Source: an uncultured Lachnospiraceae bacterium | Lineage (GTDB): Bacteria; Bacillota; Clostridia; Lachnospirales; Lachnospiraceae | Length of the DNA stretch: 64,000 nucleotides | NCBI GenBank assembly: GCA_947165025.1 | Contig: CAMUYQ010000001.1 | Coordinates: forward strand, 186,001 to 250,000 | Direction of reading: 5' to 3' | Shown: piece by piece, positions 43,582 to 62,853 of the stretch | How positions within the stretch are numbered: position 1 is the stretch's first letter | How the letters are laid out: each line of letters starts with the position of its first letter | Position numbers and translations under genes: made by a program | Notes under the pieces: generated by a model | Told to the model about the DNA's origin: nothing | Database searches by the model: none | What the model saw: only the letters and a program-made list of their open reading frames with translations

Positions 43582-43609
43582 ATAATACCCGATTTTTCAA
43601 ATTAATCAA
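43582..43609 (-). promoter_or_regulatory. Promoter of tyrS
   Basis: TTGATT (43604-43609) and TATTAT (43582-43587), 16-base spacer, on the minus strand. The -35 overlaps the last codons of the giant protease gene; no terminator was seen between the two. Confidence 0.5.
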
Positions 43610-46600
43610 GGTTTATTAACGTAACCGTACATACGGAGCTCTTATTGCTGCCGTCCGTTGTCTTTGCAGTGATCTTGACCGTTGTCTGCACAGCCTTGGT
43701 CGGAAGATTACCGGTAGGCTTAAGTATCGCATTACCTTCAGCATCCTTCTCAACAGTCAGATACTGCGGAGCCGACGACGTATACTCAACATCCTTGTAC
43801 GTTGCATTTGCCGGTCCGTAGATAGGGATAAGCTTACCCTGCTGCCTGCGTCCGGGATCTGATCCCGTTGACAATGTCATAGTTGTTTTGTTGAGAGTCA
43901 GCGTTGTAACTGCTTCGAAGGTCTCAACAGGGAATGTGAATGACTTGCCGATCAGGTCCTTGGACTTGACGATAACCGATGTATTTCCAACAGCTTTTCC
44001 GGTAAGCGTACCGTTAGGATTAACAACAGCTATTCCTGTTCCTCCATCTGCTATGCTCCAAAGCAGTCCTTTATCTGCCGGCTGGTAAGGCAGACCTTCA
44101 TTGAACACAGGTGTAAGGCCAAGTGTCTTGCCACGCATTACCTGTGCTTTTCCATCAGCGTTAAGCTGCTTGAACGTAAGTGTCTCGACTGCCTGCTTAA
44201 GCGTTACCGTACATACCGTACTCTTATTCGTTCCATCTGTTGATGTCGCTGTTATCTTGACCGCTGTCTGTACTGCCTTGGCAGGAAGCTGTCCTGTAGG
44301 AAGCAGTGAGATCGTTCCATCATGATTATCTCTTACATCCAGATACTGCGGTGCTGATGAGGTGTACTTAAGTTCCTGATACCTTGCAGTTGCAGGCACT
44401 ATCTCAGGTGTCAGTATCCCTTCCTGTCTGAACGCATCTGTCGATCCTGTCGCAAGGTTAAGCGCTGTTTTATTAAACTTAACACCTGTTACTGCTTCAA
44501 ATACTTCTACATCTACATTGAAATCCTTACCTACAAGATCCTTCGATTTGACGTTTACCGTAGCGTAGTGACCGACTGTGGTCTCGCTCTTACCTGTTAT
44601 TACTCCGTTTGCATTTACCGCTATCTCAGGATCTGCCGTTGTCCAGATAAGTCCTTTATCTGCCGGCTGGTAAGGCAGGCCTTCATTGAACACAGGTGTA
44701 AGGCCAAGTGTCTTGCCACGCATTACCTGTGCTTTTCCATCAGCGTTAAGCTGCTTGAACGTAAGTGTCTCGACTGCCTGCTTAAGTGTTACCGTACATA
44801 CCGTACTCTTATTGCTTCCGTCAGTTGTAGTAGCAGTAATCTTGACAGCTACCGATGTAGCCTTTGCAGGAAGATTTCCTGTCGGTTTAAGTACTGCATT
44901 ACCAGCAGAATCTTTTTCTACCTCCAGATACTGCGGTGCTGATGAGGTAAAATTAAGGACCGGAAGTGAAGAATTATCAGGAAGCACAGTCGGAATCAGT
45001 ATTCCTTCCTGTCTGAACGCATCCGTTGATCCTGTTGAAAGGTTAAGCGCTGTTTTATTAAACTTAACGCTTGTTACGGGCTGGAATACGTTTACGGTAC
45101 ATTCATTGGACTCTATACTTCCATCCTTTGATGTTGCCTTTATAGTGGCTGTTCCTCGCGACTTCGCAGTTACAGTTCCGTTTGATGCATTAACTGTTGC
45201 AACCAAAGGATCTGAACTTGACCATACAAGTGTCCTGTCTGCAGGCTGTACCATACCGCCGTTTAATACGCTGCGCATAGCAAATGACTGTCCCGTAGTC
45301 AGATCGACCGGGCCTGCATTTATACGGATACTCTCCATTCGCTGGTTGATATTGACAGTACATACTGCACTCTTCTTGCTGCCATCTGTTGCGGTTGCAG
45401 TAAGCCTAACGGATGTTTTCACCTGCCCGGCAGGGAAGTTTCCGGTGGGTTTTACCGTAGCTGTCCCATCACCGTTATCGGTAACAGTCAGATACAGATC
45501 ATTAGAGCATGTAAATACAACACTCTTATCTGTAGCGGTGGGACGATTAACGATAGTCGCAACCGTCGTCTCTTCGCAAAGCTCCGCGCTCGTTCCGGCC
45601 ATAAGATTCACGGTTCCGGCAGTGAATGCGACAGAAGATACATACTCGGTAACGGTCACCTTACACTTATTCGACTCGATCGAACCGTTTTCTTTCGATA
45701 CAGCCCAAATATTCGCCTCTCCACCGGCCTTTGCCGTTACAACACCTGAAGCATTAACAACAGCAACTGTATCATTATCTGTCTTCCATTCTAGCGCCTT
45801 GTTGTTGGGCTGGTTGGGAAGTTCCGCGCCTTCGGCTTTCCTGTTAAACGTCGGAGTAAGAGCCATCGTCTTACCGCAGCCAAGTGCCAACTCTGATTTA
45901 TTGAGTTCGATCGTCTCGACCTTCTGATAGATCGTTACAGGGCAGGTTGCCGTAACCTTGCTGCCATCAACAGCTTTTGCGATAACATTAACAACAAAGC
46001 TTGTCTTTCCTGCAGGGAGCTTTCCGGTAGACTTAACCTTTGCAGTTCCGTCACCGTTATCTGTAACAGTAAGATAATTTGAATCAGCTGAATAGATTTC
46101 AAGATCTCTTATCGAAGCCGTAGCCGGAAGTGCGGTTGCCTGCAGAACAAACTCATCGCAAAGCGAAGACGTGGATCCGCATCCAAGCGTCTTTTTCGTC
46201 TCTGAAAGAGTAATCGATTTAACAGGCTGAACTACCGTTATCTGGCATTCATTTGATTTGATGGCGCCTTCATTTGAAACTGCCCATACCTTTGCAGTAC
46301 CACCTGCCTTACCGGTCACAACACCGGCTGTACTTACAGCAGCAACCGACGCATCAGACGTATGCCAGGTGACAGCCTTATTCTGGGGCTGGTATGATTT
46401 TCCTTCATTAAAGACAGGAACAAGCGTCTTCGTTGTATTAAACGGAATGTTCTCTGAACCGCTGATCTTAACAGATTCTACCCTCTGATTGATCGTTACG
46501 GTGCAGACAGCATACTTATGGCTTCCGTCAACTGCGTTTGCAGTAACATTTACAGTAACCGTGCTCTTCCCGTCAGGAAGTATTCCTGTGGGCTTCAGAA

Positions 46601-49600
46601 CGCATGTACCGTTACCTCGGTCTACAACATTCAGATATGTTACATTCCCCGATTCAAATTCGATACCCCTGTCACTTGCAGTTTCCGGAAGTGCCGTAGC
46701 TCGAAGTTCCATCTCTTCACAAAGCGAAGTTGTGGAGCCGCTTAACAGCGTAGCCTTCGTGGAAGTAAGCGAAACAGTTGATACCGGCTCATTAACGGTT
46801 ACTTCGCATTCATTCGAAGAAATGTTACCGTCATTAGATACAGCTTTGACTATGGTAGTTCCGCCGGCCTTACCGGTAAGCACACCCGTAGTTTCATTAA
46901 TCGTAGCTGCCGCAGGATTAGAACTTGTCCATTTCAGGCTCGTATCAGATGGCTGAACAGGATCAGCGTCATTGAAAACAACATCCAGTTTGAGTGTTCC
47001 GCCCTTTACCATCTTGGCCTTGGACGAAATTGTGACTTTCTTAACAGGTGTAGTAACCTTGACGGTACAGGTTGCAGTCTTATTTGATCCGTCAAGTGTT
47101 TTGGCAGTAATTGTGGCTGTTCCATTCTTTAACGGTTCAACTGTTACATCACCGTATCCCGTTTCCGTCATCTTAACAATTTGGGGATTACTGTTGGTCC
47201 AGCTCAGACGCGTGTCAGTTGCATAATCCGGTGTGATTGTCGGAGTCAGGTATGTAATGAACTCATCATCAGGATGAATGTAGACAGTAGACGGATTAAA
47301 CTCAAGTTTCTGTATAGGTGCTTTCCACATCGCATACAGATTGACAGTTCCGCCATCTTTGGAAGTCAGATTCTTAACTGATGCTTTATTCGCATAAGTC
47401 GTTCCATTTCCGTCAGTCTCGGTGTTCCACCCGGCAAAAACATATCCTGTCTTCGTAAATGTATTGGCACTCAGAGTGTAATTCGACCCATATGCAGCCT
47501 GAGTCGGTGCCATCGTACCTGTTCCGCCGTTAGGCCAGTATTTGATCTTATATGAATTGGGCTTGTACTTGGCCGTGAGTGTATAATCAATATACAAGGG
47601 GGCTCCATACATATCATACAGCGGAAGGTTATTGGTACATCCCTGTAAATGCGACTCATACCAACCAATAGCTGAGTAACCTTCCGGCGCGATCGGATTG
47701 TCGAAATAAACATTGAAGCCCTGGGTATATCTCGTAGGATTTGTAGAAGGATTCTTGCCGATTCCTGCATTATAATTAATCTTATATGATGCAGTAAAAT
47801 AAATCTCGGCCTTTCCGGAGCTGGAGGCTCCATAAGCTTCGGCATATACCTGATACTCTATAGAGGTTGTCCCGCTCGGAATATTGCTAATATCATCAGT
47901 AACCTCAAAATATGTCTGTCCGGGTTCAGGATAATAATATCCCAACGTTTCTTGAGAGTAACTGTATTCATACATCGTATCGGAAATTTTTGTCTTAATG
48001 ACCGAGGTTCTTTGTAACATGAAGTCAGTAGCCCCCGTTACCGCATTGAACTTTACCTTGACAGTGTTGCCGGATTTTGTTGCAGTAACAACAGGATTAT
48101 CAATACTGACAGAAAACGTCCTTGTACCCTCTACCGACCCATTGCAAACAGATGCAAGGATTTTGGCATTACCTGTAGATAAAACAGTCATCAGACCATT
48201 CTCATCAATAGTGGCGACAGAAGTATCAAGGCTTGTCCACGAAACATCTCCTTCAAATGTTGCACCTGCAGGAGTCGGAACAACACTTAACTGGTATGTT
48301 TTCCCTGCAAAAAAGGGTTCCGGTTCAGAACACTTAATGCTGAGCCCCTGTAATGTTCTTGCAACATGAACATCAAAAGAGGTACTTACGTTTCTATCCC
48401 TCGTTGTAACAGTTATCGTTGCAGTGCCCATTCCGACACCGGTGATAACACCTTTTTTATCGACAGTTACAATACCTTCATCTGAAGAAGTCCAGACGAG
48501 TCTCTTATCCGTAGCATCTGTCGGATAAACCGTGTATTTAACAGAATAATCTTCCTCTTTATTTATATCGATATATCCATCAATATATCCCGGATCATCG
48601 ATATCGATCTCTTCAACGGGTACTATAGTCGCATCCGTGATATTCTTGGTAAATGCCTTGATCCTGGCATTACCGGAATAGTATCTGCCTTCGTATAAAT
48701 CATCCCATCTGCTGCGATATGCGAAGCTCTGTCCCGGCTTTATGGCAGTATTAAACTGCGCCGTACCGTTATTGCTTTCACTCTCAACAGCGATCTGGCA
48801 ACCATCTTTAGGATCCACAACCACAGAAAAGATCGTGCCTTTTGTCATCTCAACGCGATCGGAAAGTTCGACAACATGATATCCGTCAAACGGAAAAGTC
48901 GCTGTCTCCTCCGAAACAAGTGTTCCGCTCTCCGGATTATCCGGATTTGTAAGGTCAGTGTAAATTCTTATATTAACCGTTGCATTCGAACCGCATGTTT
49001 CAACACCAACTGCACGAAGTTCTTCCGTTCCATCTTCTTCAGAGGCAACTTCAAAGACATTTGCCATCTTGTTGTTTTCATAAGAAAACGGCTCACCTAT
49101 CGAACCATCATACTGATAGTTGTTATCATAATCGGATGTATCCGTAAACGAGAAGAAAACACAGTCATCCACAAGGCTCTTATCGCAGTATGACATCCAG
49201 AAATAGCCGGAATACTCCTGCCTATTACTGTATTTTCCGGTCGTCCAGCTGTTTCTTACAAGCCATGCTCCGTTTGTTTCGGGTGTTACCGGAAACTTGG
49301 TTTTATCAAAATTATCATCCCAACCGACTATCATTACCGCATGATTCGCTGAAGTTGGATAAGGACAATAATATGCATTATTAGATGTGTTATAGAGGGA
49401 ATCGCTTGTTATTGCAGCCAGACTGTTCGCAGCATAGAAACTGATACCACCTGCACCGTATTTTTTTATATATTCTTTAACTATATCCGGATTGTTTTGA
49501 AGACTTACATGTTCAACAGATTCGAGATATGCGACATCATCATATGCCTTGGAATCATCAAGTTTAGTCAGATTGTCGACACTGCCGGCGAGACTGTATG

Positions 49601-50426
49601 GAACAGTAGCCTCATTTGCCGCACCCATCCAGTTCATCAGAGTATGCGTTGCCAGATAATAGTTTCCGCCTCGCTCCAGGAATCCCTTTCCCCATACATT
49701 TTCACTCTGATCGCCTTCTGTAAGGCCAAGAGGATCGATGACCGAATTCATCGTATAATATGCAAGATGAAGTTCCGACAGTCCATCCTGTCCCAGATTG
49801 GCATTGACATTAGCAGTTCTGCTCTGGGCAGCAAGTGAGAACTCGGCAAGTCCTATAGAAGAAAATGCCCAGCACGTACCATATGGGTTCTGGTTTCTGA
49901 GTGGAATTGAATTCAGAAGAGATTCATTAACATATCTTGATTCAAGGGAACTTCCACGAAGATTGTGATACTGCTCTTTTAAAACACTGGGGTCTCTGTA
50001 ATTCTCAGGAGCAACGTAACCTGTCGCATACTCTACTCCCTCTTCAAGAGCGCCCGCACCGGGATTCTCGTCCTCCTCAGTCTGTTCACCCTCAAGGGCT
50101 TTATCACCTTCAAGGCTCTCTTCAGGCACAACTTCACCTTCAGGCAGCTCTTCACTTTCAGGCTGCTCGCCCTCTTCTTCACCCGCTTCGCTAAAATCAT
50201 TTGCGCCTAATTCATCCGCCGGTGTACCTTCAGAAGTGTCCACCGTTATTTCCTGTCCGGATTCGGAATCTGCGCCAGGATCTTCTTCACCCTCAGCATC
50301 TTCAACATACTCCGACGACAGCGTCGGTGTATTGCCCTCAAATACCTCAGGCTCTGCAAATACGGTTACCGTATCCGCAAATACGAGCGAAAGTGCAAGT
50401 ACAAGACTAAGTATCCTTTTCTTCAT
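43602..50426 (-). CDS. Giant secreted papain-like (C1A) protease with Ig-like repeat array
   Basis: A 2274-residue secreted protein. Residues 1-24 are a signal peptide, 28-130 an acidic Glu/Pro-rich stretch. Residues about 170-430 are a C1A papain-type protease: Gln179, Cys185 (PYGTCWAFSS), His362 (ANHAVMIVGWD), Asn392 (LVRNSW). A lectin-like domain follows (about 440-600, as in many gut Firmicute C1 peptidases), then two Big2-like domains, a Fn3-like domain and two Listeria-Bacteroides (InlB B) repeats (ending NLYAMWK). From DNA position about 47325 to the end it is an alternating A-B Ig-like array: six A-B pairs and a last A module. No LPXTG or other anchor was seen, so attachment is unknown. 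It has its own promoter (50494-50522) and AGGGAGA before the ATG. Confidence 0.9.
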   Translation of the reverse strand: MKKRILSLVLALSLVFADTVTVFAEPEVFEGNTPTLSSEYVEDAEGEEDPGADSESGQEITVDTSEGTPADELGANDFSEAGEEEGEQPESEELPEGEVVPEESLEGDKALEGEQTEEDENPGAGALEEGVEYATGYVAPENYRDPSVLKEQYHNLRGSSLESRYVNESLLNSIPLRNQNPYGTCWAFSSIGLAEFSLAAQSRTANVNANLGQDGLSELHLAYYTMNSVIDPLGLTEGDQSENVWGKGFLERGGNYYLATHTLMNWMGAANEATVPYSLAGSVDNLTKLDDSKAYDDVAYLESVEHVSLQNNPDIVKEYIKKYGAGGISFYAANSLAAITSDSLYNTSNNAYYCPYPTSANHAVMIVGWDDNFDKTKFPVTPETNGAWLVRNSWTTGKYSNRQEYSGYFWMSYCDKSLVDDCVFFSFTDTSDYDNNYQYDGSIGEPFSYENNKMANVFEVASEEDGTEELRAVGVETCGSNATVNIRIYTDLTNPDNPESGTLVSEETATFPFDGYHVVELSDRVEMTKGTIFSVVVDPKDGCQIAVESESNNGTAQFNTAIKPGQSFAYRSRWDDLYEGRYYSGNARIKAFTKNITDATIVPVEEIDIDDPGYIDGYIDINKEEDYSVKYTVYPTDATDKRLVWTSSDEGIVTVDKKGVITGVGMGTATITVTTRDRNVSTSFDVHVARTLQGLSIKCSEPEPFFAGKTYQLSVVPTPAGATFEGDVSWTSLDTSVATIDENGLMTVLSTGNAKILASVCNGSVEGTRTFSVSIDNPVVTATKSGNTVKVKFNAVTGATDFMLQRTSVIKTKISDTMYEYSYSQETLGYYYPEPGQTYFEVTDDISNIPSGTTSIEYQVYAEAYGASSSGKAEIYFTASYKINYNAGIGKNPSTNPTRYTQGFNVYFDNPIAPEGYSAIGWYESHLQGCTNNLPLYDMYGAPLYIDYTLTAKYKPNSYKIKYWPNGGTGTMAPTQAAYGSNYTLSANTFTKTGYVFAGWNTETDGNGTTYANKASVKNLTSKDGGTVNLYAMWKAPIQKLEFNPSTVYIHPDDEFITYLTPTITPDYATDTRLSWTNSNPQIVKMTETGYGDVTVEPLKNGTATITAKTLDGSNKTATCTVKVTTPVKKVTISSKAKMVKGGTLKLDVVFNDADPVQPSDTSLKWTSSNPAAATINETTGVLTGKAGGTTIVKAVSNDGNISSNECEVTVNEPVSTVSLTSTKATLLSGSTTSLCEEMELRATALPETASDRGIEFESGNVTYLNVVDRGNGTCVLKPTGILPDGKSTVTVNVTANAVDGSHKYAVCTVTINQRVESVKISGSENIPFNTTKTLVPVFNEGKSYQPQNKAVTWHTSDASVAAVSTAGVVTGKAGGTAKVWAVSNEGAIKSNECQITVVQPVKSITLSETKKTLGCGSTSSLCDEFVLQATALPATASIRDLEIYSADSNYLTVTDNGDGTAKVKSTGKLPAGKTSFVVNVIAKAVDGSKVTATCPVTIYQKVETIELNKSELALGCGKTMALTPTFNRKAEGAELPNQPNNKALEWKTDNDTVAVVNASGVVTAKAGGEANIWAVSKENGSIESNKCKVTVTEYVSSVAFTAGTVNLMAGTSAELCEETTVATIVNRPTATDKSVVFTCSNDLYLTVTDNGDGTATVKPTGNFPAGQVKTSVRLTATATDGSKKSAVCTVNINQRMESIRINAGPVDLTTGQSFAMRSVLNGGMVQPADRTLVWSSSDPLVATVNASNGTVTAKSRGTATIKATSKDGSIESNECTVNVFQPVTSVKFNKTALNLSTGSTDAFRQEGILIPTVLPDNSSLPVLNFTSSAPQYLEVEKDSAGNAVLKPTGNLPAKATSVAVKITATTTDGSNKSTVCTVTLKQAVETLTFKQLNADGKAQVMRGKTLGLTPVFNEGLPYQPADKGLIWTTADPEIAVNANGVITGKSETTVGHYATVNVKSKDLVGKDFNVDVEVFEAVTGVKFNKTALNLATGSTDAFRQEGILTPEIVPATARYQELKYTSSAPQYLDVRDNHDGTISLLPTGQLPAKAVQTAVKITATSTDGTNKSTVCTVTLKQAVETLTFKQLNADGKAQVMRGKTLGLTPVFNEGLPYQPADKGLLWSIADGGTGIAVVNPNGTLTGKAVGNTSVIVKSKDLIGKSFTFPVETFEAVTTLTLNKTTMTLSTGSDPGRRQQGKLIPIYGPANATYKDVEYTSSAPQYLTVEKDAEGNAILKPTGNLPTKAVQTTVKITAKTTDGSNKSSVCTVTLINLD
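44065..44813 (-). repeat. Near-identical internal DNA duplication, period 585 bp
   Basis: Two blocks of about 165 bp (44065-44228 and 44650-44813) are nearly identical, offset by exactly 585 bp (195 codons), with only a couple of differences. They encode the end of one A module and the B-module stretch around ADGKAQVMRGKTLGLTPV. Elsewhere the modules match only at protein level, so this is a recent duplication or gene conversion within the array. Confidence 0.85.
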
Positions 50427-50493
50427 GTGATCAGATCTCCCTTGTTTATATATAAAAAACGCATATTATCACATCTTATCCCAATTATGATGA

Positions 50494-50522
50494 TTATACC
50501 CCACAGCAGTCACGAAAACAAG
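50494..50522 (-). promoter_or_regulatory. Promoter of the giant protease gene
   Basis: TTGTTT (50517-50522), 17-base spacer, TATAAT (50494-50499) on the minus strand. The leader is about 65 bases. Confidence 0.6.
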
Positions 50523-50553
50523 GCGAAACCCTTGAAAATATCAACAAAAACAG

Positions 50554-50589
50554 CAAAAAAATCCCGTGACAATTGCCACGGGATTTTCC
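50554..50589 (-). terminator. Terminator after pckA
   Basis: Minus-strand stem AAAATCCCGTG/CACGGGATTTT (about 50557-50587), 8-base loop, followed by a run of U. Confidence 0.93.
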
Positions 50590-50620
50590 CTATAAAACCT
50601 ATATATTATGATTTTACAAA

Positions 50621-52336
50621 TTACAGAGCATCAACGAGCTTCTGAACAGCTGCGAGAGCCTCATCGGGAAGCTTGTCATAGCCTTCCTTCTTCTCAGCAA
50701 AGCCCTTAACTGCGTCAACACGGTTCTGCATAGCAGCCTTAAGTGCAGCCTTGTACTCAGGATCGTTAAGATCGGGTGTGAAGTCACCTGTCTTGCCGTT
50801 CCAGTCATTCATGATCTCGATGTCCTCGAAAGGTCCCCACTTCTCAAACTTAGCCTTTCCTTCAACGATAGTCTCAAGGATTCCGAGAGTGTCTTCCTTC
50901 TGGCACTTGTGTCCCATGAAGTCACCTGTGTTAACGATGTAGCAGTCAACGTTCTTCTCTGCAACGAGCTTCTTGAACTTGTCATAGTCGTTAACGAGAG
51001 GATATGTTCTGAACGGGTTAGCGTAAGGAACGATACGAAGAGCATTCATATCTGTACCAGCTTTTACACGCTCAGCTGTAGATGTCTTTGTAGCAAGTGT
51101 AGCACCCATAACAGATGCAAGTGCAGCACCTTTAAGTTTAACAACGGGCGGAATTGCAGGATCCTTCATGATCCAGAAGATCGCATTAACGGGAGCATCG
51201 ATCTTATCAACACGGTTCGGGCTCCAAAGCTTTGACTTGATGGCACGTCCGTTACCGTTTCTGATATCCTCCGTAACGATCTGGATCTTACCGTTCTCAT
51301 CCATCGTAGCCGAGCAGTTCTGAACAGTAAGAAGATAATCGTTATCAGGACATCCTGTAGGATAATCGTTTGTCTTGTCGAAGTATGTAGGCTCAAGTGC
51401 GATCGAAGCACATGTATCAGAGTTGATGATGAACGCATCATCGTGAAGAACCTTGATACCGCCGAACTTGTCATACTTGCCGTCATGCTTAGCATGTGTA
51501 AGTGTTGACTTACCTGATCCTGACAGACCATAAACTGAAGCAACGAACTTCTTGCCGCCCTCAAGTGAGTATTCCTTCTGTCCGCCGTGGCATGATGCAT
51601 AACCGTTTCTGTTAGCAAGAGCCCAAGCCATTGTAAGAGTACCCTTCTTGTGCTCACCGAAGTACTTCATACCAAGGATTGCAGCACAGTTCTGGTTTGT
51701 ATCGAAGTAGCAAAGTGTAAGATCATCAGACAGGCAGCTGTAATCTACGTCCGGAGCGGGTTCGGGTGCCCACTGGGGATCCGAGAAGATGTAGATATCA
51801 GGCTCCTTGCCATCGCCGATAGGCTTTGACTGAGCATACATCTTGTTATAGGAGTCGCTCATGTACTGGAAGTTGAGCATCCAGTTGTAAAGGAGGTTCT
51901 CCTCACCTTCGGGAATAAGAAGATGAGCCTTTGCCATGAACTCAGGATCAAGTCCCACATAGCACTCTGCATGATACATTGTCTTCCAGCGTGTCTTGTA
52001 GACAGCATCCATAACAACCTTATCAAGCTTAACCTCATCAACACCGGGCTCGCCCTTGATACGTCTTGCCTGAGCATAACGTCCTGTAACAGCACCGTCG
52101 TTGAACAGAAGAACCTTTGCATCCTTCTCAAGTCCAAAAAGCTCGCCATCCTTAACAGGCATATCAGTTACGATAGTACCCGGAGAATTCTTTGCAAGCT
52201 CATAAGCTTCTTTTAATGTGTTGATCTTGACAACGTTGTTCTGATAGAAAGCGCCTTCAATGATGGAACGCGTTCTTGAAAAACCAACTTTGTCTTTTCC
52301 GATCTCACTGATCGGATAATACGCTTTTGTTGACAT
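50621..52336 (-). CDS. pckA: Phosphoenolpyruvate carboxykinase (ATP)
   Basis: PckA interconverts oxaloacetate and phosphoenolpyruvate with ATP/ADP; in fermenting anaerobes it often runs toward oxaloacetate for succinate or anaplerosis, while in others it is gluconeogenic. The protein has 571 residues. The nucleotide-binding P-loop is YGLSGSGKSTLT (about 269-280), followed by GGIKVLHDDAFIINSDTC (kinase-2) and SMGATLATKT-like substrate segments. I chose the ATG at 52336 (MSTKAYYPISEIG) with AAGGAGGAG upstream; an earlier ATG would start in the leader. It lies between the two giant genes and has a strong promoter overlapped by an inverted repeat. Confidence 0.94.
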   Translation of the reverse strand: MSTKAYYPISEIGKDKVGFSRTRSIIEGAFYQNNVVKINTLKEAYELAKNSPGTIVTDMPVKDGELFGLEKDAKVLLFNDGAVTGRYAQARRIKGEPGVDEVKLDKVVMDAVYKTRWKTMYHAECYVGLDPEFMAKAHLLIPEGEENLLYNWMLNFQYMSDSYNKMYAQSKPIGDGKEPDIYIFSDPQWAPEPAPDVDYSCLSDDLTLCYFDTNQNCAAILGMKYFGEHKKGTLTMAWALANRNGYASCHGGQKEYSLEGGKKFVASVYGLSGSGKSTLTHAKHDGKYDKFGGIKVLHDDAFIINSDTCASIALEPTYFDKTNDYPTGCPDNDYLLTVQNCSATMDENGKIQIVTEDIRNGNGRAIKSKLWSPNRVDKIDAPVNAIFWIMKDPAIPPVVKLKGAALASVMGATLATKTSTAERVKAGTDMNALRIVPYANPFRTYPLVNDYDKFKKLVAEKNVDCYIVNTGDFMGHKCQKEDTLGILETIVEGKAKFEKWGPFEDIEIMNDWNGKTGDFTPDLNDPEYKAALKAAMQNRVDAVKGFAEKKEGYDKLPDEALAAVQKLVDAL

Positions 52337-52382
52337 ACAGTCTCCTCCTTTATATGAAAAACTACAATTAAAATCCAAACTG

Positions 52383-52496: not shown

Positions 52497-52515
52497 GAAA
52501 ATCATTAATAAAGAC

Positions 52516-55500: not shown

Positions 55501-58500
55501 GGGATTCTGATTGTTAGCAATCGTCATCTGAGTATTATCAAGACGCAATGATCCAGTAGCAGGCTCTATTACCTGAACTTCACAGAAATTGGACTGTTTG
55601 TCACCGTCTTCAGATACGCAGGATATATTAGCAGTACCTGTGGTATTACCTGCAGTTACAACACCGTTTACAACAGTGGCTACATCTGTGTCACTTGAAT
55701 TCCATTCTTTAATCTTCTTATTTGCAGGCTGAGTTCTTCCGGCATTAAATGTCAGCTGAAGAGTCTGCTTCTTGCCCTTGCGAAGAATAATACTGCCAGG
55801 AAGTTTTACGGATTCAACACGCTGAACTACGTTGACCGTCAAAGTAGCAGTCTTGTTGCTGCCTTCGGTAGTCCTTGCCGTAACTTTGACTACGGCCTTG
55901 GACTGTCCGGCAGGAAGCTTTCCGGTTGTAGATATCGTTCCCGTTCCATCTCCGTTATCTTCTACAGCAAGAATTTCAGGATTTGATGACGTAAACTGAA
56001 CAGGCATATCTGCCATACTGGGCGTAATTGTAACCGCAAACGCCTGATTTTCAATGATTGCTGATTCTGTCGTCTCATCATATCCGGTTCCGAGTGTTAT
56101 TGTACTCTCGGTCGGCGACGCAAATTCAACCTTCGTAATCGGTTCACGAACCGTAAGAGTACACTCATTGGATACAACTCTACCATCTTTCGATTTTGCA
56201 GTGATATGTGCAGTACCTTCCGCTATTGCTGTTATGACACCGGTTCTGCTGACAATTGCAACGCCTTCAGCGTCGCTCTCCCATATAAGTGTCTTATCTA
56301 CAGGTTGTGTAAGACCCTCGTTGATAATGGGAGTAACTGTATATCGTTTGTTTTTAAGTATGTTTAGCGAATTCGATATCTTGATCGTTTCAATACGCTC
56401 ATTAATCGTAACCGTACATACGCAGGTCTTCTTTGAATTATCTTCAGACGTAACTGTAGCTGTAACTCTTACAACCTGTGTTGACTTGCCGCCAAGATTA
56501 CCTGTTCCGGCAAGATGAACTACGGTATCATCCTCTGAATCCTTGTTAACAACAAGGAAATTGGGGTTTGAAGATACATAAGTTATATCTTTAATATCTG
56601 CGTTTTCAGGTTTCGTTATGAGTGTCAGGAGACTTTCTTCATTGAGGTTCACGTCCTCTGCTGTTTCCATCGTAAGTGTAGCATGGTTGAACGAAACCGA
56701 TGTTGCAGGCTGGATAATATTAACCGTACACTCGTTGGATACAAGCTCGTTTACCTTAGACTTGGCAACAACAGTTGTTGTACCATGCCCAACAGCCTTT
56801 ACTACACCGGTAGCGCTTACTGTTGCAACAGAAGGATCAAAGCTTTCGTATATCAGACCCTTATCAACGGGCTGATGAGCTTTTTCGTGTGTTTCTGTGT
56901 TTACTTCAAAATCATTAAATACCGGCTTAAGAGCTACACTCTTTCCAACAGCAAGATTTAATTCATTATCGATACTAAGTGTTTCCGGTACCTGGTTGAT
57001 CGTTACGGCACAAACTGCGCTCTTCTTTGAGCCATCAGTTGCTGTTGCAGTAACCTTGATACCAACCGATGATTTGTTCTTAGGGAACGTATCACTTGTC
57101 TTTGCAGTGATGGTAAGTGAACCATCCTCATTATTCTCAAAATCTACATAATTCTGGTCTACAGAAGAGATCGACCATGTAATACCACGATCCGTTGCTG
57201 TCAGCGGAAGTGCTGTTGCAGTAAGCGTAGCTGACTGACAAAGATCATCCGTAGAACCTGTACCGAGAACAAGCGACTTATCCAATGATATTGAAGATAC
57301 AGGCTGTGTAACCGTAAAGTCTACAACGTTGGACTCAACGCCACCGTCGTTTGCAACAGCCATAATAGTTGTTTTACCGCCTGACTTAGGTGTAACAATA
57401 CCTCTAGCATCAACAGTTGCTACTGTCGGATCCGAGCTTACCCATGTAAGTGTCTTGTCAGCAGGCTGATGCTCAAGTCCCTCATTAAACACTGCGGTAA
57501 GTGTCTTTGCCTTACCCATCGGTGTTGTCAGATCAGAAACAAGAGACGTTCCGACCTTCTCACCGATCTCAAGTGTCTCTACATGCTGTTTAACTGTAAG
57601 CGTAGCTGCTGCACTCTTCTTAGAACCATCTTCTGCAGTTGCTGTGACTTTAATAGCCACCTGTGAAGCATTCGCGGGAAGTTCTCCGGTAGGTGTGAAG
57701 TAAACACTGTCCTCATCCGGATTTCTTGTCATTGTAACCCACTGTGTAGCTTCGCCAGGAATACTGTATGTAATTTTGCGGTTTGTAGCAGTTTCGGGAT
57801 TTGCTACTGCCTTAACAACAAGCTGATCTCTGAATTCATTCGTTGAGCCTGTACCTGTAGTATAAGCCTTCTCGGTAAATGCAACAGAAGCAACCGGCTG
57901 CGTAACATTAATGGTACATTCATTTGAAATAATACCACCATCAACTGATCTTGCTATGATCTTAGCGGTTCCACCTGCCTTACCTGTTACAACACCCTTT
58001 GCGTTAACTACAGCAACAGTAGGATCAACGCTTTCCCAAGTAACATTCTTGTTGGCGGGCTGATAAGGTCTTACTGAAGGATTACTTAACTCATGCGTTG
58101 ACGGGTCCTCAATTTTGTTAAATGCAAGGCCCTTTGAGAGGTCAACACTCTTCCCAACAGCGATATCCTCTGCCGAGTAAGGAATATGTACTGACTCAAC
58201 ATGCTGTTTTATAGTAACCTTAACAACCGCTGATTTATTCTTTGTTGGATCTTCTTGGTCAGTTGATCTGAACGTAACAGGGATGAATGAAGTAGTTGCA
58301 AGTGCAGGCGGGAATTCTCCTACTGCCTTAAACGTGAAAGTTCCATCCTCATTGTTCGTTACAACGAGACAATCAGCAAAATCATCTTCTGTAAGGTCAT
58401 TACCGGATTTATCCTTAGCCGGGAATTCAACAGAAAGGTTTCTATTTGACGCTGTAAGAGGTAACGCCGTTACTTTAATAGTTACTGAATCATTGAATTC

Positions 58501-61500
58501 ATCAGTAGTTCCACATCCGAGATCAAATGCAGCCTTCTCAACCGAAATTGAAGCTACGGGTTGAGTAACATTTATAGTAATAGCATTTGATTCCAGACCG
58601 TTATCTGCTGCCTTTGCTATTACAGTTGTCTTACCGCCTGCCTTAGGTGTTACAACACCGTTTGCATTAACAGTTGCAACCGTAGGATCTGAAACAGACC
58701 ATGTGATAGCTTTATTGTTAGGCTGATTAGAACATGCACTGTTTAATACAGCAGTAAGTGCCTTCGATGATCCCATTGGAACAGTGAATTCATCGATAAT
58801 ATTTCCCTGGCCGTCAACTGCTAAGTATGTATCTTTCTTTTCGCCTATCTCAAGTGATTCAACTGCCTGAACAAGTGTAACTGTACAGTTAACAAATTTC
58901 TTACTATCGTCATTTGCTTTAACAGTTACAGGAACAACAGTCTTTGTAGCTCCGGTAGGAAGGCTTCCTGTCGGAACAAGTGTAACTGTTCCATCATGAT
59001 TTTCTTCTACTGTAAGGTAATTCGTATCACCTGATGTATATGTAACAGTTCTGTCAGTTGCTGTTTCCTTAAGAACAGTTGCATCAAGAGTAGCGGTCTC
59101 GCGGAACGAAGCAGAACCGGTTCTTAATGTTACAGCATTGGGCTTAAGTGTGATCGAAGAAACAAGCTCCTTTACTGTAACAACGCATTCATTGGATTCA
59201 ATTCCACCGTCTTTAGCTCTGGCTATGATAGTAGCTGTTCCGCCTGCCTTACCGGTAACAACACCGGATGCGCTGACTGTTGCAACAGAGGGATTGGAGC
59301 TTTCCCATGTGAGAGCTTTGTTTGCAGCAGTCTGAGAAAGTCCCCTGTTAAACTCAGGTGTAAGAGCTATTGTCTTTCCGACTGCAACCTCTGCAGATTC
59401 CAAAATATGAACAGACTCAACATGCTGCTTGATCGTAACCTTAACCTGTGCAGACTTGTTTGATTCATCTGTTGACTTGAAGGTAACAGGAATATATGAC
59501 AACTTAAGACTTGATGGCGGGAATGAACCACCGGCCTTAAATGTAAATGTGCCATCGCCGTTATCATAAACAGTAAGAACATCATCGCCGACGCCTGAAG
59601 GTAATTCAACAGCAAGATCTCTCGTTGTAGCTGTAAGCGGCAGTGCCGTTACTTTGATAGTAACAGAATCATTAAATTCATCCGTAGAACCGCATCCAAG
59701 ATCGAATGCAGCCTTTTCAACTGTAATTGATGAAACCGGCTGTGTAACTTCTATGGTGCATCTATTGGATTCAAGACCGCCATCTCTTGAAGTTGCGTAT
59801 ACAGTTGTAAATCCACCAGCCTTGGGTGTAACTACACCTGCAGCATTGATCGTTGCAACTGTGGGATTTGTTATGGTCCATGTAAGTGTCTTATCAGCGG
59901 GCTGATAATACAGTCCGTCATTAAAAACGGGTGTAATTGTTGTGTTCTTACCAACTGCGGCAGTAACCTGATCAGGGATTTCAAGCGTTTCAACACGCTG
60001 CTTAAGCGTTACGTTACAAACCGCGGTCTTTCCACTTCCGTCCTTGGCTGCGCAGACGACCTTAACCACAACACTGGTCTTTCCGTCCGGAAGAACACCC
60101 GTAGGTGTAAGTGTTGCGCTTCCATCCGGATGAGTGGTTACTGTAAGGTACTTGGGGCCATCCACTCCATCGGCGTAATAAACAACTTTATTGATCGTTG
60201 CATTAGCGGGAGATACAGTTGAGAACAGTCTTGCATCTTCACGGAATGCTTCAGTACCTGTTCCCAGGTTAATTGCAGTTTTATCAAGTTTTATAGCTGA
60301 AACAGGGGTAGCTGCTCCGATAACAACCTTAAGGTTGGCAGCTGACTTGATGCCTGTTACTTCGTAGTACTTGACTGTATGTTCTTTGCCATTAACTGTA
60401 TAAACATCAGTCTTTGCCGCAAGAACAGTATTGTTGTTGCTGACGCTCTTAATCTGAGTCAGACTCGAGTAATCGATATTATCCGGATCTTCCTGTCCAT
60501 CAGCAAGTTCTACAACAAATCTGAATGTACCGTTATACAGAACCTCTGTGTGAGTTGAGTTAACGGCGGCCCCTACCACACCGGGGGTACTTGATGTACT
60601 GGGTGTATACTGCTTGATAGTTACTCCGCTTGGAGTATTCGCATATACAGGAATACGTGCTGTTCTCAATTGTACTTCAAAGTGCGCACTTGATCCCGAA
60701 TCCCACAACTGCTCGATCATGGTCTTATCAAGCGTCCATGTAAAACCGGTATTGGAAGGATTATAAGATGTATCAACGACTTCACCGGCTTTGTTCTTAA
60801 TTACAAGCTTGACACCCTTTATTTCTGAATTAGACGGAACGGGGTTATCATTGATCTGCTTACCTGCAGGAGCTGTATACTTTGCAGTTACTGCAGTATT
60901 AGTTGCAGTACTTGAAGACCATCCCTTTCCGTTTGTATTCGTTGCTCCACCGGAAAGAGTGATCGTCTCTGTTGTTGAACGCGTACCATCTTCTTCCAGA
61001 ATCTCTGCTGTGATATTTACAGGAGGTCTGGGAGTGGTCTTAACAATAATGGACGCACCGGTAGCTATACGGAAATTATTGTCACCTGACTGATCTGTCT
61101 GATAAAGCTTATAAAGCATTGCATCTTCAGTCGGGTTCTGATCTGTACCGGAAATAGTCTGGGTAATTGTCTGATTATTGCCATCCTTTGCTGTCATGGT
61201 AACAGATTCAACATCATAACCGTTAACTCTGTTAACTTTCAGATAAACATCTTTCTTATAATTTGTGGTAATATTTCCGCCACCATTAAACTTTGTAGAA
61301 GTAACATTGTCATTGCTCCATTCAAGTGAAGCTGTGGCAGGAACGTTCTGATTGGAGGCATTTCTGACGTAAACAGGGATTGTATATGTTCCGCTAAGTG
61401 CTGTTTCGACTAAAACTGTTTTAGCTGAATCAGCAGTAATTACCCAGTTGTTCCCGCTCTTAGTTACGCCACCACCGGTAAGCGTTCCTACAGTACCCCT

Positions 61501-62853
61501 TGCCATAATGGGAACAATCGTAACCTGAGCATCCTTTTTCACTGATAATGTTATGGAATGATCAGAATTAACAGTGTATTTTTTAATCTTCTTTCGTTCT
61601 TCTTTTTTCTGTCTTGATGCCCAGCTTGACGGAATTATCTGTTCAATCGAGCAAAGCCGCGATACATCCTGATCATCATTTGTAGGTACAAACATAACAT
61701 CTACAAATTCAGGTAATATGGGGGTAATAACAACGTTACCCTCGATTTCCGTATCGCCCGCTTCATTAACCTGAAGAATATAATGATCAACGCTACCATA
61801 TTTGTTCAATACCGGTTTAATGTATGCATCATTTCCACCAATAGTAGCTTTTGCACCGGCAACATCAAATTCACCGCCGCCTGCTATTTCCTCGTCATAA
61901 GAAAAATAGAATCTTATCTGTTTTGTGCCTTTTTTTACAACATATCTGCTTGTACTTGTATCAGGATCATAAAACTCTATTGTTCCACTATAACCTTCTT
62001 GCCAACTACCAATATCTTCGTTGTAGTTTTCGGGGTAAACTGAATATCCAAGTAATTCCGATTCTGAATAGCTGCCAAAATTGACAGAGTAGTCTTTCCC
62101 TACTACTACATTGATCGTTACATTACCGTTAAGATAATCACCAATCCCCTGTTCCCTAGTTCCTCTGTGAACAACATATGATGTTCCACCCCACTCACGT
62201 GCATATATAGCAAGATCTTCCGTTTCACCATTTATATCAATTGTTGCAGAAACATTCTCAACATGATATCCATCATCAGGAACAATCTTTACCACAAGAG
62301 AAGTGCCTGCAGGCGAATCTTCTGTATTATATAATTTGGAAACATAATAATTGTCGCCATCTTTTGTAATACCATTATTGTTATACGGATCATCCTCATC
62401 CGGAAGAACAGTATAATGGTCAGTTCCCATATTATTCGAACAATTTACAGTATACTGACTTGGAATGCTATTACCATTTGCCAGGTTCGAATACTCAGCA
62501 TTCATAGAACCAAGTTCAACGACTTGCTTCTCTGCCAGCGGATCTTCTGCTTCGTCTTTATTATCTTCCGAAGTTTCTCCTTCTTCTCCCTCTTCAGCCT
62601 CACCTTCGAGTTCACCTTCATCGCCGTTGGCTTCAGACTCATCGTCTTCAACACTTAACGAAGGAGTGTGAGCATTTTCCCCGATGCTCTCATCGGCAGC
62701 CTGCTCTTCCACTATCGCATCTTCTTCGTTTTCTGATGCGAGTGTGGGCTCAGTGGGAGCTGCGAAAGCATACTCAGGGAAGCTTGTAGCTATGACTGCA
62801 GCTGCAAGAATGCCCGTTAAAAGCCGCTTAACGCTCGAATGTAGATTGTTCAT
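52516..62853 (-). CDS. Giant secreted protein with 13 A-B Ig-like repeat pairs
   Basis: A 3445-residue secreted protein with no recognised catalytic domain. Residues 1-31 are a signal peptide (ILAAAVIATSFPEYAFA), then a Glu/Asp-rich segment. About 750 residues of less repetitive beta-rich sequence follow, including a Big2-like SLEWSNDNV stretch. From DNA position about 60312 to the stop the protein is 13 alternating pairs of two Big2/Ig-like modules: A (ends ...TVTLKQ or INLVQ-type, with YLTV, NxDGT and PTGxLP landmarks) and B (QPANK or QPADK-type, VVTGKAGG and ESNECTV landmarks). Each pair is about 600 bases. Most modules carry a Cys near the module end. No LPXTG was seen. The ATG at 62853 follows AAGGAGG; a longer upstream frame lacks support. 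Confidence 0.88.
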   Translation of the reverse strand: MNNLHSSVKRLLTGILAAAVIATSFPEYAFAAPTEPTLASENEEDAIVEEQAADESIGENAHTPSLSVEDDESEANGDEGELEGEAEEGEEGETSEDNKDEAEDPLAEKQVVELGSMNAEYSNLANGNSIPSQYTVNCSNNMGTDHYTVLPDEDDPYNNNGITKDGDNYYVSKLYNTEDSPAGTSLVVKIVPDDGYHVENVSATIDINGETEDLAIYAREWGGTSYVVHRGTREQGIGDYLNGNVTINVVVGKDYSVNFGSYSESELLGYSVYPENYNEDIGSWQEGYSGTIEFYDPDTSTSRYVVKKGTKQIRFYFSYDEEIAGGGEFDVAGAKATIGGNDAYIKPVLNKYGSVDHYILQVNEAGDTEIEGNVVITPILPEFVDVMFVPTNDDQDVSRLCSIEQIIPSSWASRQKKEERKKIKKYTVNSDHSITLSVKKDAQVTIVPIMARGTVGTLTGGGVTKSGNNWVITADSAKTVLVETALSGTYTIPVYVRNASNQNVPATASLEWSNDNVTSTKFNGGGNITTNYKKDVYLKVNRVNGYDVESVTMTAKDGNNQTITQTISGTDQNPTEDAMLYKLYQTDQSGDNNFRIATGASIIVKTTPRPPVNITAEILEEDGTRSTTETITLSGGATNTNGKGWSSSTATNTAVTAKYTAPAGKQINDNPVPSNSEIKGVKLVIKNKAGEVVDTSYNPSNTGFTWTLDKTMIEQLWDSGSSAHFEVQLRTARIPVYANTPSGVTIKQYTPSTSSTPGVVGAAVNSTHTEVLYNGTFRFVVELADGQEDPDNIDYSSLTQIKSVSNNNTVLAAKTDVYTVNGKEHTVKYYEVTGIKSAANLKVVIGAATPVSAIKLDKTAINLGTGTEAFREDARLFSTVSPANATINKVVYYADGVDGPKYLTVTTHPDGSATLTPTGVLPDGKTSVVVKVVCAAKDGSGKTAVCNVTLKQRVETLEIPDQVTAAVGKNTTITPVFNDGLYYQPADKTLTWTITNPTVATINAAGVVTPKAGGFTTVYATSRDGGLESNRCTIEVTQPVSSITVEKAAFDLGCGSTDEFNDSVTIKVTALPLTATTRDLAVELPSGVGDDVLTVYDNGDGTFTFKAGGSFPPSSLKLSYIPVTFKSTDESNKSAQVKVTIKQHVESVHILESAEVAVGKTIALTPEFNRGLSQTAANKALTWESSNPSVATVSASGVVTGKAGGTATIIARAKDGGIESNECVVTVKELVSSITLKPNAVTLRTGSASFRETATLDATVLKETATDRTVTYTSGDTNYLTVEENHDGTVTLVPTGSLPTGATKTVVPVTVKANDDSKKFVNCTVTLVQAVESLEIGEKKDTYLAVDGQGNIIDEFTVPMGSSKALTAVLNSACSNQPNNKAITWSVSDPTVATVNANGVVTPKAGGKTTVIAKAADNGLESNAITINVTQPVASISVEKAAFDLGCGTTDEFNDSVTIKVTALPLTASNRNLSVEFPAKDKSGNDLTEDDFADCLVVTNNEDGTFTFKAVGEFPPALATTSFIPVTFRSTDQEDPTKNKSAVVKVTIKQHVESVHIPYSAEDIAVGKSVDLSKGLAFNKIEDPSTHELSNPSVRPYQPANKNVTWESVDPTVAVVNAKGVVTGKAGGTAKIIARSVDGGIISNECTINVTQPVASVAFTEKAYTTGTGSTNEFRDQLVVKAVANPETATNRKITYSIPGEATQWVTMTRNPDEDSVYFTPTGELPANASQVAIKVTATAEDGSKKSAAATLTVKQHVETLEIGEKVGTSLVSDLTTPMGKAKTLTAVFNEGLEHQPADKTLTWVSSDPTVATVDARGIVTPKSGGKTTIMAVANDGGVESNVVDFTVTQPVSSISLDKSLVLGTGSTDDLCQSATLTATALPLTATDRGITWSISSVDQNYVDFENNEDGSLTITAKTSDTFPKNKSSVGIKVTATATDGSKKSAVCAVTINQVPETLSIDNELNLAVGKSVALKPVFNDFEVNTETHEKAHQPVDKGLIYESFDPSVATVSATGVVKAVGHGTTTVVAKSKVNELVSNECTVNIIQPATSVSFNHATLTMETAEDVNLNEESLLTLITKPENADIKDITYVSSNPNFLVVNKDSEDDTVVHLAGTGNLGGKSTQVVRVTATVTSEDNSKKTCVCTVTINERIETIKISNSLNILKNKRYTVTPIINEGLTQPVDKTLIWESDAEGVAIVSRTGVITAIAEGTAHITAKSKDGRVVSNECTLTVREPITKVEFASPTESTITLGTGYDETTESAIIENQAFAVTITPSMADMPVQFTSSNPEILAVEDNGDGTGTISTTGKLPAGQSKAVVKVTARTTEGSNKTATLTVNVVQRVESVKLPGSIILRKGKKQTLQLTFNAGRTQPANKKIKEWNSSDTDVATVVNGVVTAGNTTGTANISCVSEDGDKQSNFCEVQVIEPATGSLRLDNTQMTIANNQNPGPELTALFENYPTITYVDFTSSNENYLKIERIKDSNEEIIGDKVRLVPTGELPAKASRVTVQVTARTTDGSNLRKVCNVTIVKKVESIQIADVTLGIGKRHVISPVFNDGGVQPDNKKLAYSNYDTDLITISSNGIITANTTTADTTSVTATALDGSNLTAEFNVTVVKPVGNMTITRTTGSADGNMIRTGSTPSFCDEAEILAEADGGDTGTTINDTSVWPADRRKFEYTSSAPEYLEVIPDENGDGAKVKTTGNLPAGRSNVLVKVTAKALDGSNKTAVMTFNVYQITENVELPHEIIIPVGKKKALYPLYNTNREDKRQPLNKGAQDNGWSAVDSADSSNPCATVTKNGVVEGLKVGATTKVTVNTVDGVSSNECLVRVVQPATGIHFEGLNSNLPNGQKINTMSVGTTEQGANVAVVFDGAPTYKDVEFVSSNEQYLTVENHHDGTARFLPTGNLPKGATRTTVQVTAKTIDGSNLRAVCNVTVIQYVNKIEISSPATTVDPDSGRQVISVIAGRRVTAVPKFNNGGLQPDNKSLTWIADGSGRISVTNSGVITAAPNAVGKATITIRANDGSMYQTEVDVNVIKPVTSVMFVGNTPGQALTGPVVLATGSDPSDPLSKMRANLTVDVAPSDASHRSVEFVSSAPKYLTVTNNNDGTCTIETTGELPAGQSKYTARITVKTTDGSNKSASVPVTIYQKVESIKLPGEIRLNMTNRKKQSIQPVFNEGGRQPANKKITGWSSSDPTVAEVVNGVVVAYKEGVTEIKATNMDVEGAVDQLCNTCTVRVIKPATGISLDKTNQYFLPDGYTVITATLEGSPNISYVDFTLSDDKYVELERLSDTEVKVKGKEHLPRNQSRVSVQLYARTTDGTNKTAVCTINLVQAIVRINEIADVTMKVGERLVINPVVNSGWVAPDASFNTLKWESSNTDCATVNRKNNDSGVAVSVGRTGVIDAKGLGTTEIHVYSQPWNDILQCNGVPAERTFRVKVVE

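What the first reader, a model, noticed from the sequence alone, without database searches (positions are those of the whole stretch)
43602..62853. Two giant secreted proteins built from the same two-module A-B repeat
A 2274-residue protease and a 3445-residue protein share signal peptide, acidic segment and an alternating array of two distinct Ig-like modules, 13 pairs in the larger and 6 pairs plus an A in the smaller. The strict alternation implies the pair, not the single domain, is the unit of duplication. A matched pair of a giant filament-like protein and a protease on a similar stalk looks like a surface system, possibly self-processing or adhesive; the link is inference.
Basis: partly seen in the sequence, partly recalled or inferred. 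Interest (0 to 1): 0.75.

Follow-up and report, generated by a model that had tools for sequence, protein, structure and literature searches.

The report
Two secreted rods sharing alternating modules
Two neighbouring genes of a Lachnospiraceae bacterium, a secreted cysteine protease and a giant fibre-like protein, carry long rods of two alternating Ig-like modules that seem to have arisen by multiplying one corner of an older stalk which related species place on many different proteins.

Summary
The 3445-aa protein carries 13 A and 13 B modules in strict alternation, the 2274-aa protease 6 A-B pairs plus an A. A and B are divergent relatives of the Big_2 kind; an A-B-A-B stretch is confidently predicted as an Ig-like rod.

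Three corrections.
(1) Two of five protease relatives examined in congeners carry a fixed-order nine-module stalk, also found on proteins with other heads; its order is conserved in eight further stalks. Window A modules best match its module 3 (17 of 20), B modules its module 2 (17 of 19). So the founding unit is B-A, and the protease's 'extra A' sits where module 1 should be.
(2) In the giant the later unit looks like two pairs; statistics are modest.
(3) A conserved 'matched pair' is not supported: the giant's head was found only in this genome, among 37 genus and 397 family genomes.

The protease head resembles C. difficile Cwp84. Self-processing, adhesion and surface location remain inference.

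The parts
43602..50426 (-). Secreted Cwp84-type cysteine protease with B-A stalk, 2274 aa
49977..50426 (-). Signal-peptide-like N-terminus and acidic segment (residues 1-150)
49191..49907 (-). Papain-family (Peptidase_C1) catalytic domain, residues ~174-412; Gln179, Cys185, His362, Asn392 in the motifs QNPYGTCWAFS, ANHAVMIVGWDD, LVRNSW
   Evidence: Pfam PF00112 6e-9, best stretch 253-412; alignment to 4d59/4ci7 from residue 174/175; positions
48648..49118 (-). Lectin_like domain PF18560, residues 437-593
   Evidence: 3e-20; alignment to 4d59/4ci7 runs to residue 594
48087..48641 (-). Two ordinary Big_2 domains before the array (region of residues ~596-780)
47325..48086 (-). Intervening region including one Listeria-Bacteroides repeat (Flg_new, residues 959-1019)
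   Evidence: aligned in G018 and G033 relatives
47049..47324 (-). First array module, intermediate between A and B; at the position of stalk module 1
   Evidence: best single-module scores M8 42.6, M3 38.9, M1 38.7
43605..47048 (-). Protease array: (B-A) x 6; the fifth and sixth A-B pairs are a recent duplication (82% DNA identity over 455 alignment columns)
52516..62853 (-). Giant secreted rod protein, 3445 aa
62509..62853 (-). Signal-peptide-like N-terminus and acidic segment (residues 1-115)
   Evidence: residues 1-112 similar to the N-terminus of a G033 stalk protein, E 2e-7 in a comparison with five proteins only
60307..62508 (-). Orphan N-terminal head, residues 116-849; no Pfam match, no relative found in the genomes searched
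   Evidence: structure model failed, pLDDT 36
52519..60306 (-). Giant array: 13 alternating A-B pairs (residues 850-3445)
58561..59739 (-). Giant pairs 2-3, apparent four-module unit related to pairs 4-5
   Evidence: A2-A4 71%, B2-B4 62%, B3-B5 58% identity, A3-A5 38%; tree
57304..58560 (-). Giant pairs 4-5, apparent copy of the four-module unit of pairs 2-3
54994..56142 (-). Giant pairs 8-9, apparent four-module unit related to pairs 10-11 and 12-13
53734..54993 (-). Giant pairs 10-11, apparent four-module unit
52519..53733 (-). Giant pairs 12-13, apparent four-module unit; last B strongly diverged
50621..52378 (-). ATP-type PEP carboxykinase gene between the two stalk genes (not part of the system)
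   Evidence: PF01293 7e-18; terminator-like site at 50590-50555, promoter-like site at 52412-52384

Best explanation
Both proteins look like exported head-on-stalk proteins. The stalk is a rod of Big_2-like Ig modules. In some related species the protease carries a fixed-order stalk of nine different modules, and the same ordered stalk also serves other heads. In this species modules 2 (B) and 3 (A) were multiplied and modules 4-9 are not recognisable, giving module 1 plus (B-A) x 6 on the protease and 13 alternating pairs on a giant protein with an orphan head; the giant apparently grew partly by two-pair steps. Most likely mechanism: the protease head is a papain-type, Cwp84-like enzyme acting outside the cell, held at a distance by a rod of 13 modules, while the giant is a long fibre (26 modules, of the order of 100 nm at a recalled 4 nm per module) that presents its head. 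The shared stalk places both in the same layer, by binding the same envelope partner or packing side by side. Shown by computation: the architecture, the homology of the arrays to modules 2 and 3, the conserved order of the stalk in congeners, the Ig-like rod prediction, and the presence of the papain-type residues. Inferred: the direction of change, surface attachment, function of the heads, and any meeting of the two proteins.
For: Strict alternation. AlphaFold2 model of an A-B-A-B stretch from 16 window rows: mean pLDDT 94.7, pTM 0.70. Near-whole-core protease relatives in G018 and G033 (49% and 46% identity) share a stalk collinear, at 31-35% identity, with proteins in G022, G013 and G025 that match the protease core only in its Big_2 region. 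Beyond these five, which built the profile and so match it by construction, eight near-full-length matches (686-789 of 831 positions) at 255-300 bits lie in five genomes. Order control: for all eight of these the native module order beats all 30 random orders of the same modules. Heads on full or partial matches include a subtilase, BspA-type LRR, a transglutaminase-like domain, DUF6273, YDG repeats and a Gln_amidase fold. Window arrays match stalk positions ~77-268 again and again, and the start of the protease array matches 8-268. 17 of 20 A modules best match module 3, and 17 of 19 B modules module 2. Window proteins gain little from the native order (giant 10 of 30, protease 2 of 30 random orders as good), as expected if they hold only the module 2-3 corner. 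A is confined: only these two proteins in the own genome at E<=1e-3; at E<=1e-12 five other genus genomes (G014, G018, G033, G022, G013) and no other genome among 397 of the family, at most 12 candidates scored per genome. Even-lag pattern in the giant: all 10 giant-only forks drawn with bootstrap >=80; lag-2 minus lag-1 identity, permutation p 0.024.
Against: No wall-anchor signal: no C-terminal LPXTG-type site (the three LPxTA-like strings in the giant and two in the protease lie inside A modules, and one NPxTN-like string at protease residue 892), and no SLH or CWB2 match in the own genome. The last stalk module (M9) is the best match of no array module; only the first plain Big_2 domain of the protease prefers it, narrowly (43.2 against 42.0 for M2). 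If M9 is the localisation signal, the arrays lack it. Some module assignments are close calls (last B of the giant 17.7 for M4 against 17.1 for M2; protease B6 38.8 for M2 against 38.3 for M4). Joint parity is borderline (p 0.051), B alone is not significant (p 0.11), and the block tests reach only 0.055-0.34, some of them at the smallest value attainable. Most tree forks are weakly supported and do not tell which gene donated the array. The stalk set was found through A hits, so the A-to-module-3 match is partly built in. Module 1 is clear in only three of the five profile proteins. Three of five protease relatives examined (G033 second copy, G027, G021) showed no A/B stalk matches beyond their core Big_2 domains. 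Foldseek TM-scores over the whole rod are low (0.19-0.40 by query length), and the top two hits are nuclear pore proteins, so the fold matches show the Ig class only. No expression or localisation data.
Confidence: 0.5

Rival explanations
1. Protease-substrate pair: the Cwp84-like protease matures the giant (or itself), as Cwp84 matures SlpA in C. difficile, the shared stalk keeping enzyme and substrate together.
For: Closest solved relatives by sequence are Cwp84, E ~1e-20 over catalytic plus lectin-like domains. In the passages that I read of PMC4089489, Cwp84 has a cleavable propeptide and a C116A form did not cleave SlpA in a co-expression assay. Genes are neighbours with the same module types.
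Against: The giant's head was found in no other genome searched (1 of 37 genus, 1 of 397 family, itself each time), although near-whole-core protease relatives exist in 4 other genomes of the genus. pckA lies between, with its own promoter-like and terminator-like sites (consensus matches only). No cleavage site could be tested.
Confidence: 0.15
2. Neutral repeat growth: ordinary Big_2 stalks expanded by unequal crossing-over and were copied between two neighbouring genes, with no shared function beyond being spacers.
For: Array seen in this genome only among those searched, recent duplication of one pair in the protease (82% DNA identity), low third-position GC in the giant (33.6% array, 32.4% head, against 48-58% in pckA and two neighbouring synthetase genes).
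Against: Modules stay open and keep the fold class while diverging to 17-78% identity: no stops in 26 + 13 modules, confident fold of the stretch modelled. Strict order was not broken by any single-module loss.
Confidence: 0.25
3. Released extracellular proteins: the protease is a scavenging enzyme with a solubility or substrate-binding tail, and the giant a shed matrix fibre; neither is surface-bound.
For: No anchor motif, SLH or CWB2.
Against: In congeners the ordered stalk is shared by heads of unrelated kinds, as expected of a common localisation device.
Confidence: 0.1

Closest known systems
Cwp84 of Clostridioides difficile (PDB 4ci7, 4d59)
   Same: Papain-family catalytic domain followed by a lectin-like domain; active-site residues present (PMC4089489 passages).
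   Different: Cwp84 has wall-binding (CWBD) repeats (figure legend); this protein has no CWB2 match and instead carries Big_2 modules and a B-A array.
SasG / Aap of staphylococci (alternating E and G5)
   Same: Two module types in alternation forming a long rod (PMC4330918 passages).
   Different: No G5 domain found by Pfam here and no LPXTG-type C-terminus; both modules here are Big_2-like Ig folds.
Embp of S. epidermidis (alternating FIVAR and GA repeats)
   Same: Giant secreted protein with 38 alternating two-motif repeats (PMC4330918 passages).
   Different: Different repeat families; no FIVAR or GA match in the Pfam scan here.
BAP, BLP1 and BLP2 of Acinetobacter (arrays of several Ig-like module types)
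   Same: Giant protein of 70-104 aa repeats, four classes with an Ig-like motif, and several proteins of one cell sharing Ig-like repeats and an N-terminal motif (PMC4647330 passages).
   Different: Big_3_4-type motifs in another phylum; the passages that I read did not describe a strict two-module alternation shared with a protease.
Big_2 (PF02368) stalk proteins such as Lig proteins and intimin
   Same: B modules are Big_2 by Pfam; profile B matches intimin and LigA/LigB chains, and two chains matched by profile A are also matched by profile B.
   Different: A modules form a divergent subclass (profile 101 against 86 positions); 0 of 5 A-class modules scanned alone reached the Big_2 cut-off.

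Membership tests
Big_2 (PF02368) | B modules score over the curated cut-off | tested here: met
   Of 16 matches in the two proteins, 13 lie in B modules (12 over the cut-off), 2 in the plain Big_2 domains and 1 in the intermediate first module (under it); 6 of 19 B modules had no listed match. One B module scanned alone 32.1 bits against 22.8
Big_2 (PF02368) | A modules score over the curated cut-off on their own | tested here: not met
   0 of 5 scanned (gA01, pA01, pA03, pA04, pA06); best 21.5 and 19.3 bits. Related by profile comparison to B, probability 96.3%
Cwp84-like C1A peptidase | Catalytic Cys, His, Asn and oxyanion Gln | tested here: met
   Cys185, His362, Asn392, Gln179; the solved construct is the C116A mutant, so the cysteine aligns to alanine
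Cwp84-like C1A peptidase | Lectin-like domain after the catalytic domain | tested here: met
   PF18560 437-593, 3e-20
Cwp84-like C1A peptidase | CWB2 wall-binding repeats | tested here: not met
   None in the protein or the own genome
Cwp84-like C1A peptidase | Removal of a propeptide and cleavage of a surface-layer protein | not testable with these tools
   Needs purified protein
SasG/Aap alternating-module fibres | G5 domains | tested here: not met
   No G5 match in the Pfam scan at E<=0.1
SasG/Aap alternating-module fibres | C-terminal sortase signal | tested here: not met
   LPxT-type strings lie inside A modules, none at a C-terminus; the genome has 4 sortase matches over cut-off
S-layer protein | SLH or CWB2 anchor | tested here: not met
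   the Foldseek list includes EA1, Sap and SbsB, at TM-scores of 0.19-0.28 by query length
Genus stalk defined here (modules 1-9) | Modules 1-3 in order | tested here: met
   Protease 1059-1325 matches stalk positions 8-268, 149.3 bits; the first module's identity as module 1 is by position, its best single-module score is M8
Genus stalk defined here (modules 1-9) | Modules 4-9 in order | tested here: not met
   No window match continues past position 382 of 831; no array module best matches M1, M5, M7 or M9; native order no better than random orders for the giant, 10 of 30, or clearly for the protease, 2 of 30

The most novel reading that the evidence does not exclude
A stalk code: in this genus an ordered Ig-module stalk acts as an exchangeable localisation tag for many heads, and this species has rewritten the tag as a uniform B-A polymer carried by two proteins, so that enzyme and fibre recognise or pack with each other through matching stalks, without sortase, SLH or CWB2.
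Probability: 0.15. Interest if true: 0.65.

Novelty: new variant of a known kind. Interest (0 to 1): 0.42.

Why it matters
It gives a traceable case of how a long periodic rod can come from an aperiodic one: a nine-module stalk, still present in congeners on several heads, appears to have been turned into a two-module polymer on two neighbouring genes. It makes testable whether Ig-module order is a localisation signal in this genus, where Big_2 stalks are common while this genome, at least, has no SLH or CWB2 match. It also shows Cwp84-type lectin-like domains (PF18560) in 25 of 37 genomes of a Lachnospiraceae genus.

Tried and rejected
Rejected: 'A and B are unrelated folds'. 'The A-B pair is always the duplication unit': the giant shows an even-lag pattern. 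'Conserved operon or matched pair'. 'Sortase-anchored' or 'SLH/CWB2-anchored' by known signals.

Led nowhere: structure of the giant's head from one sequence, pLDDT 36. Repeats within that head: only matches with E of about 0.01 or worse. Viral contigs: 5 stretches matched a pattern, none a relative. Trees did not resolve which gene donated the array. Parity tests on sub-blocks of the giant had too few units to be decisive. NCBIfam gave only a weak intimin match far under its cut-off and one List_Bact_rpt repeat.

Literature: Lachnospiraceae + Big_2 + cysteine protease gave 0 papers; giant + bacterial Ig-like + Lachnospiraceae + surface protein gave 0. Searches (4 listed; 8 listed; 12 of 20 listed) showed nothing on this system in titles and abstract starts; (12 of 15 listed) gave the BAP paper. 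I read passages of three papers, none whole. The held library is open-access papers only, so absence there is weak.

Genomes are one per species and many are incomplete. Rows left out: the sixth near-whole-core protease relative (G021, cut by its contig end) was not examined for its stalk; of the 12 stretches, 8 were scanned with Pfam, the other four (L085, L087, L089, L090) were not.

Full report
What is there. Two long minus-strand genes lie on either side of a PEP carboxykinase gene. One (43602-50426) encodes a 2274-aa protein and the other (52516-62853) a 3445-aa protein. Both begin with a signal-peptide-like stretch and a strongly acidic segment. Profiles built for the two repeat classes place 13 A and 13 B modules in strict alternation in the giant, and six A-B pairs plus an A in the protease. 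Scores are 52 bits or more for the assigned class and at most 31.5 for the other.

What the modules are. B modules are Big_2 domains by Pfam: of 16 Big_2 matches in the two proteins, 13 lie in B modules, two in plain Big_2 domains before the protease array, one in the intermediate first module, and none in any other A module (places turned into residues by hand). A modules are not recognised at the Big_2 cut-off when scanned alone (0 of 5 A-class modules scanned), but profile comparison with B gives 96.3% probability. The A profile has 101 positions and the B profile 86; 16 of 20 A modules hold G-x-L/F-P, and 18 of 19 B modules hold N followed within 25 residues by QP or AP. An A-B-A-B stretch, modelled from 16 window rows, is predicted with mean pLDDT 94.7. 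The Foldseek list is led by two nuclear pore proteins, followed by the S-layer protein EA1, an RTX adhesin tandem, a phage tail protein, protocadherins and others; TM-scores by query length are 0.19-0.40. This places the modules in the Ig-like class and says nothing of function.

The protease. Residues 174-594 align with C. difficile Cwp84 crystal structures over catalytic and lectin-like domains, and the papain-type Gln, Cys, His and Asn are present. In PMC4089489, of which I read passages, Cwp84 has a cleavable propeptide, a cathepsin L-like domain and a calcium-binding lectin-like domain, and plays a key role in maturing SlpA. The PF18560 lectin-like domain occurs in 25 of 37 genomes of the genus, up to eight times, and twice in this genome. 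One contig of a genus member (L062) is the reverse complement of the public record of Lachnospiraceae bacterium RUI284 (L032), so the genus lies in that family.

Where the array comes from. Six relatives match nearly the whole protease core (820 or more of 885 residues), in four other genomes of the genus. Five were examined. Two of them (G018, and one G033 copy) carry a stalk with one strong A module amid other Big_2-like modules; three (second G033 copy, G027, G021) show no A/B matches beyond the core Big_2 domains. The sixth is cut by its contig end. The G018 and G033 stalks are collinear, at 31-35% identity, with C-terminal stalks in G022, G013 and G025, whose proteins match the protease core only in its Big_2 region, and more weakly with two G033 proteins. 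The G022 frame begins at its contig start, so its head may be incomplete. I cut this stalk into nine modules on the G018 sequence; module 1 is clear in G018, G033 and G022 only, and Pfam recognises five or six Big_2 stretches singly in the G022, G013 and G025 proteins.

Is the order real? In the genus search, the five matches above 1100 bits are the five rows that built the profile. Beyond them, eight matches cover 686-789 of 831 positions at 255-300 bits, in G015, G016, G018, G028 and G033 (four there); 18 of 37 genomes, this one included, have some match at E<=1e-30. As a control I rebuilt the profile with its modules in 30 random orders: for all eight the native order scored above every random one (native 253-298 bits, best random 202-234). 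The same held for the subtilase protein of G003 (137.5 against 122.8); for two partial matches one random order in 30 did as well (G014, G013:C73). Heads carried by full or partial matches include a subtilase, BspA-type leucine-rich repeats, a transglutaminase-like domain, DUF6273, YDG repeats, Flg_new repeats and a Gln_amidase fold.

The window against the stalk. 17 of 20 window A modules score best with module 3 (the others with modules 6, 6 and 8), and 17 of 19 B modules with module 2 (the others with module 4), some by small margins. Against the whole stalk, the arrays match positions of about 77-268 repeatedly, and the start of the protease array matches 8-268 in one run. Native order brings no advantage for the giant (10 of 30 random orders do as well) and little for the protease (2 of 30). 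The simplest reading is that modules 2 and 3 were multiplied while modules 4-9 were lost. The protease then reads module 1 + (B-A) x 6. The first module's best single score is module 8 (42.6 bits), with modules 3 and 1 close behind (38.9, 38.7), so its naming rests on position. The stalk set was collected through A matches, so the A-to-module-3 result is partly circular; the B result and the order are not.

How the giant grew. Identity averaged over A and B is 35.1% at lag 1, 40.4% at lag 2, 33.4% at lag 3 and 37.3% at lag 4. In the trees, all ten giant-only forks with bootstrap of 80 or more join modules an even number of steps apart, but only three are starred at 95/80. Permutation gives p 0.024 for lag 2 minus lag 1 and 0.051 for joint parity; for A alone 0.035 and for B alone 0.114, and 0.055-0.34 for sub-blocks with few units. 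A four-module unit is therefore likely for pairs 2-5 and 8-13, not proven. The protease's fifth and sixth A-B pairs are a recent single-pair duplication (82% DNA identity over 455 alignment columns).

Are the two genes a system? The giant's 809-residue query region (residues 41-849) found only itself in 37 genus genomes and in 397 family genomes (in the family search at most two candidates per genome were scored). It has no Pfam match, and its structure could not be modelled. The two best promoter-like sites of the stretch (11 of 12) precede the giant and pckA, and the two best terminator-like stems follow pckA and precede the giant; no such stem is listed between giant and pckA, and promoter-like sites overall are no more frequent than in shuffles (21 against a mean of 25.3). 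Nothing thus suggests one transcript, without proof against it. Neither protein has a recognised wall anchor, and the genome has no SLH or CWB2 match. Surface location is plausible from the signal peptides and the shared stalk but is inference.

Judgement. This is a new variant of a known kind: modular Ig-rod proteins, one with a Cwp84-like head. Alternation of two modules has precedents in SasG/Aap and Embp (PMC4330918 passages), and giant arrays of several Ig module classes, shared by several proteins of one cell, in Acinetobacter BAP and BLPs (PMC4647330 passages). What is unusual is the visible origin of a periodic rod from an ordered stalk shared among many heads, and its presence on two neighbours.

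Noticed in passing
63034-63999 (continues beyond the window; L078:335-2131): Upstream of the giant lies a membrane protein with the Wzy_C (O-antigen ligase) domain, 598 aa in full; a role in surface glycans or protein glycosylation is possible.
   Followed up: partly
L032 / L062 (RUI284), 12133 bp; L061 (G027:C16): Two Cwp84-like proteases in tandem in L032; both there and in L061 the protease follows recA-like and recX-like genes. The recA/recX names are from reading the sequence, not from a search.
   Followed up: partly
L041 (G033:C22), L079-L087: Several genus members end their Big_2-like stalks in a similar last module on unrelated heads, by eye; the last module could be the localisation signal.
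   Followed up: partly
L080 (G016:C196): A Gln_amidase (papain fold toxin 1) domain lies in front of a Big_2 stalk.
   Followed up: no
52516-62853: Third-position GC of the giant is low (array 33.6%, head 32.4%) against 48-58% in pckA and the neighbouring genes read as pheT and tyrS; the protease array is 41.2%, its core 38.7%.
   Followed up: no
G000:C5:120245-121615 (L064): The second Cwp84-like protease of this genome, 1487 aa open frame, with no Big_2 match at E<=0.001.
   Followed up: partly
G000:C6 (L065:5680-12657): A 2326-aa open frame with eight Flg_new_2 stretches and two Big_2 domains, another repeat-rich protein.
   Followed up: no
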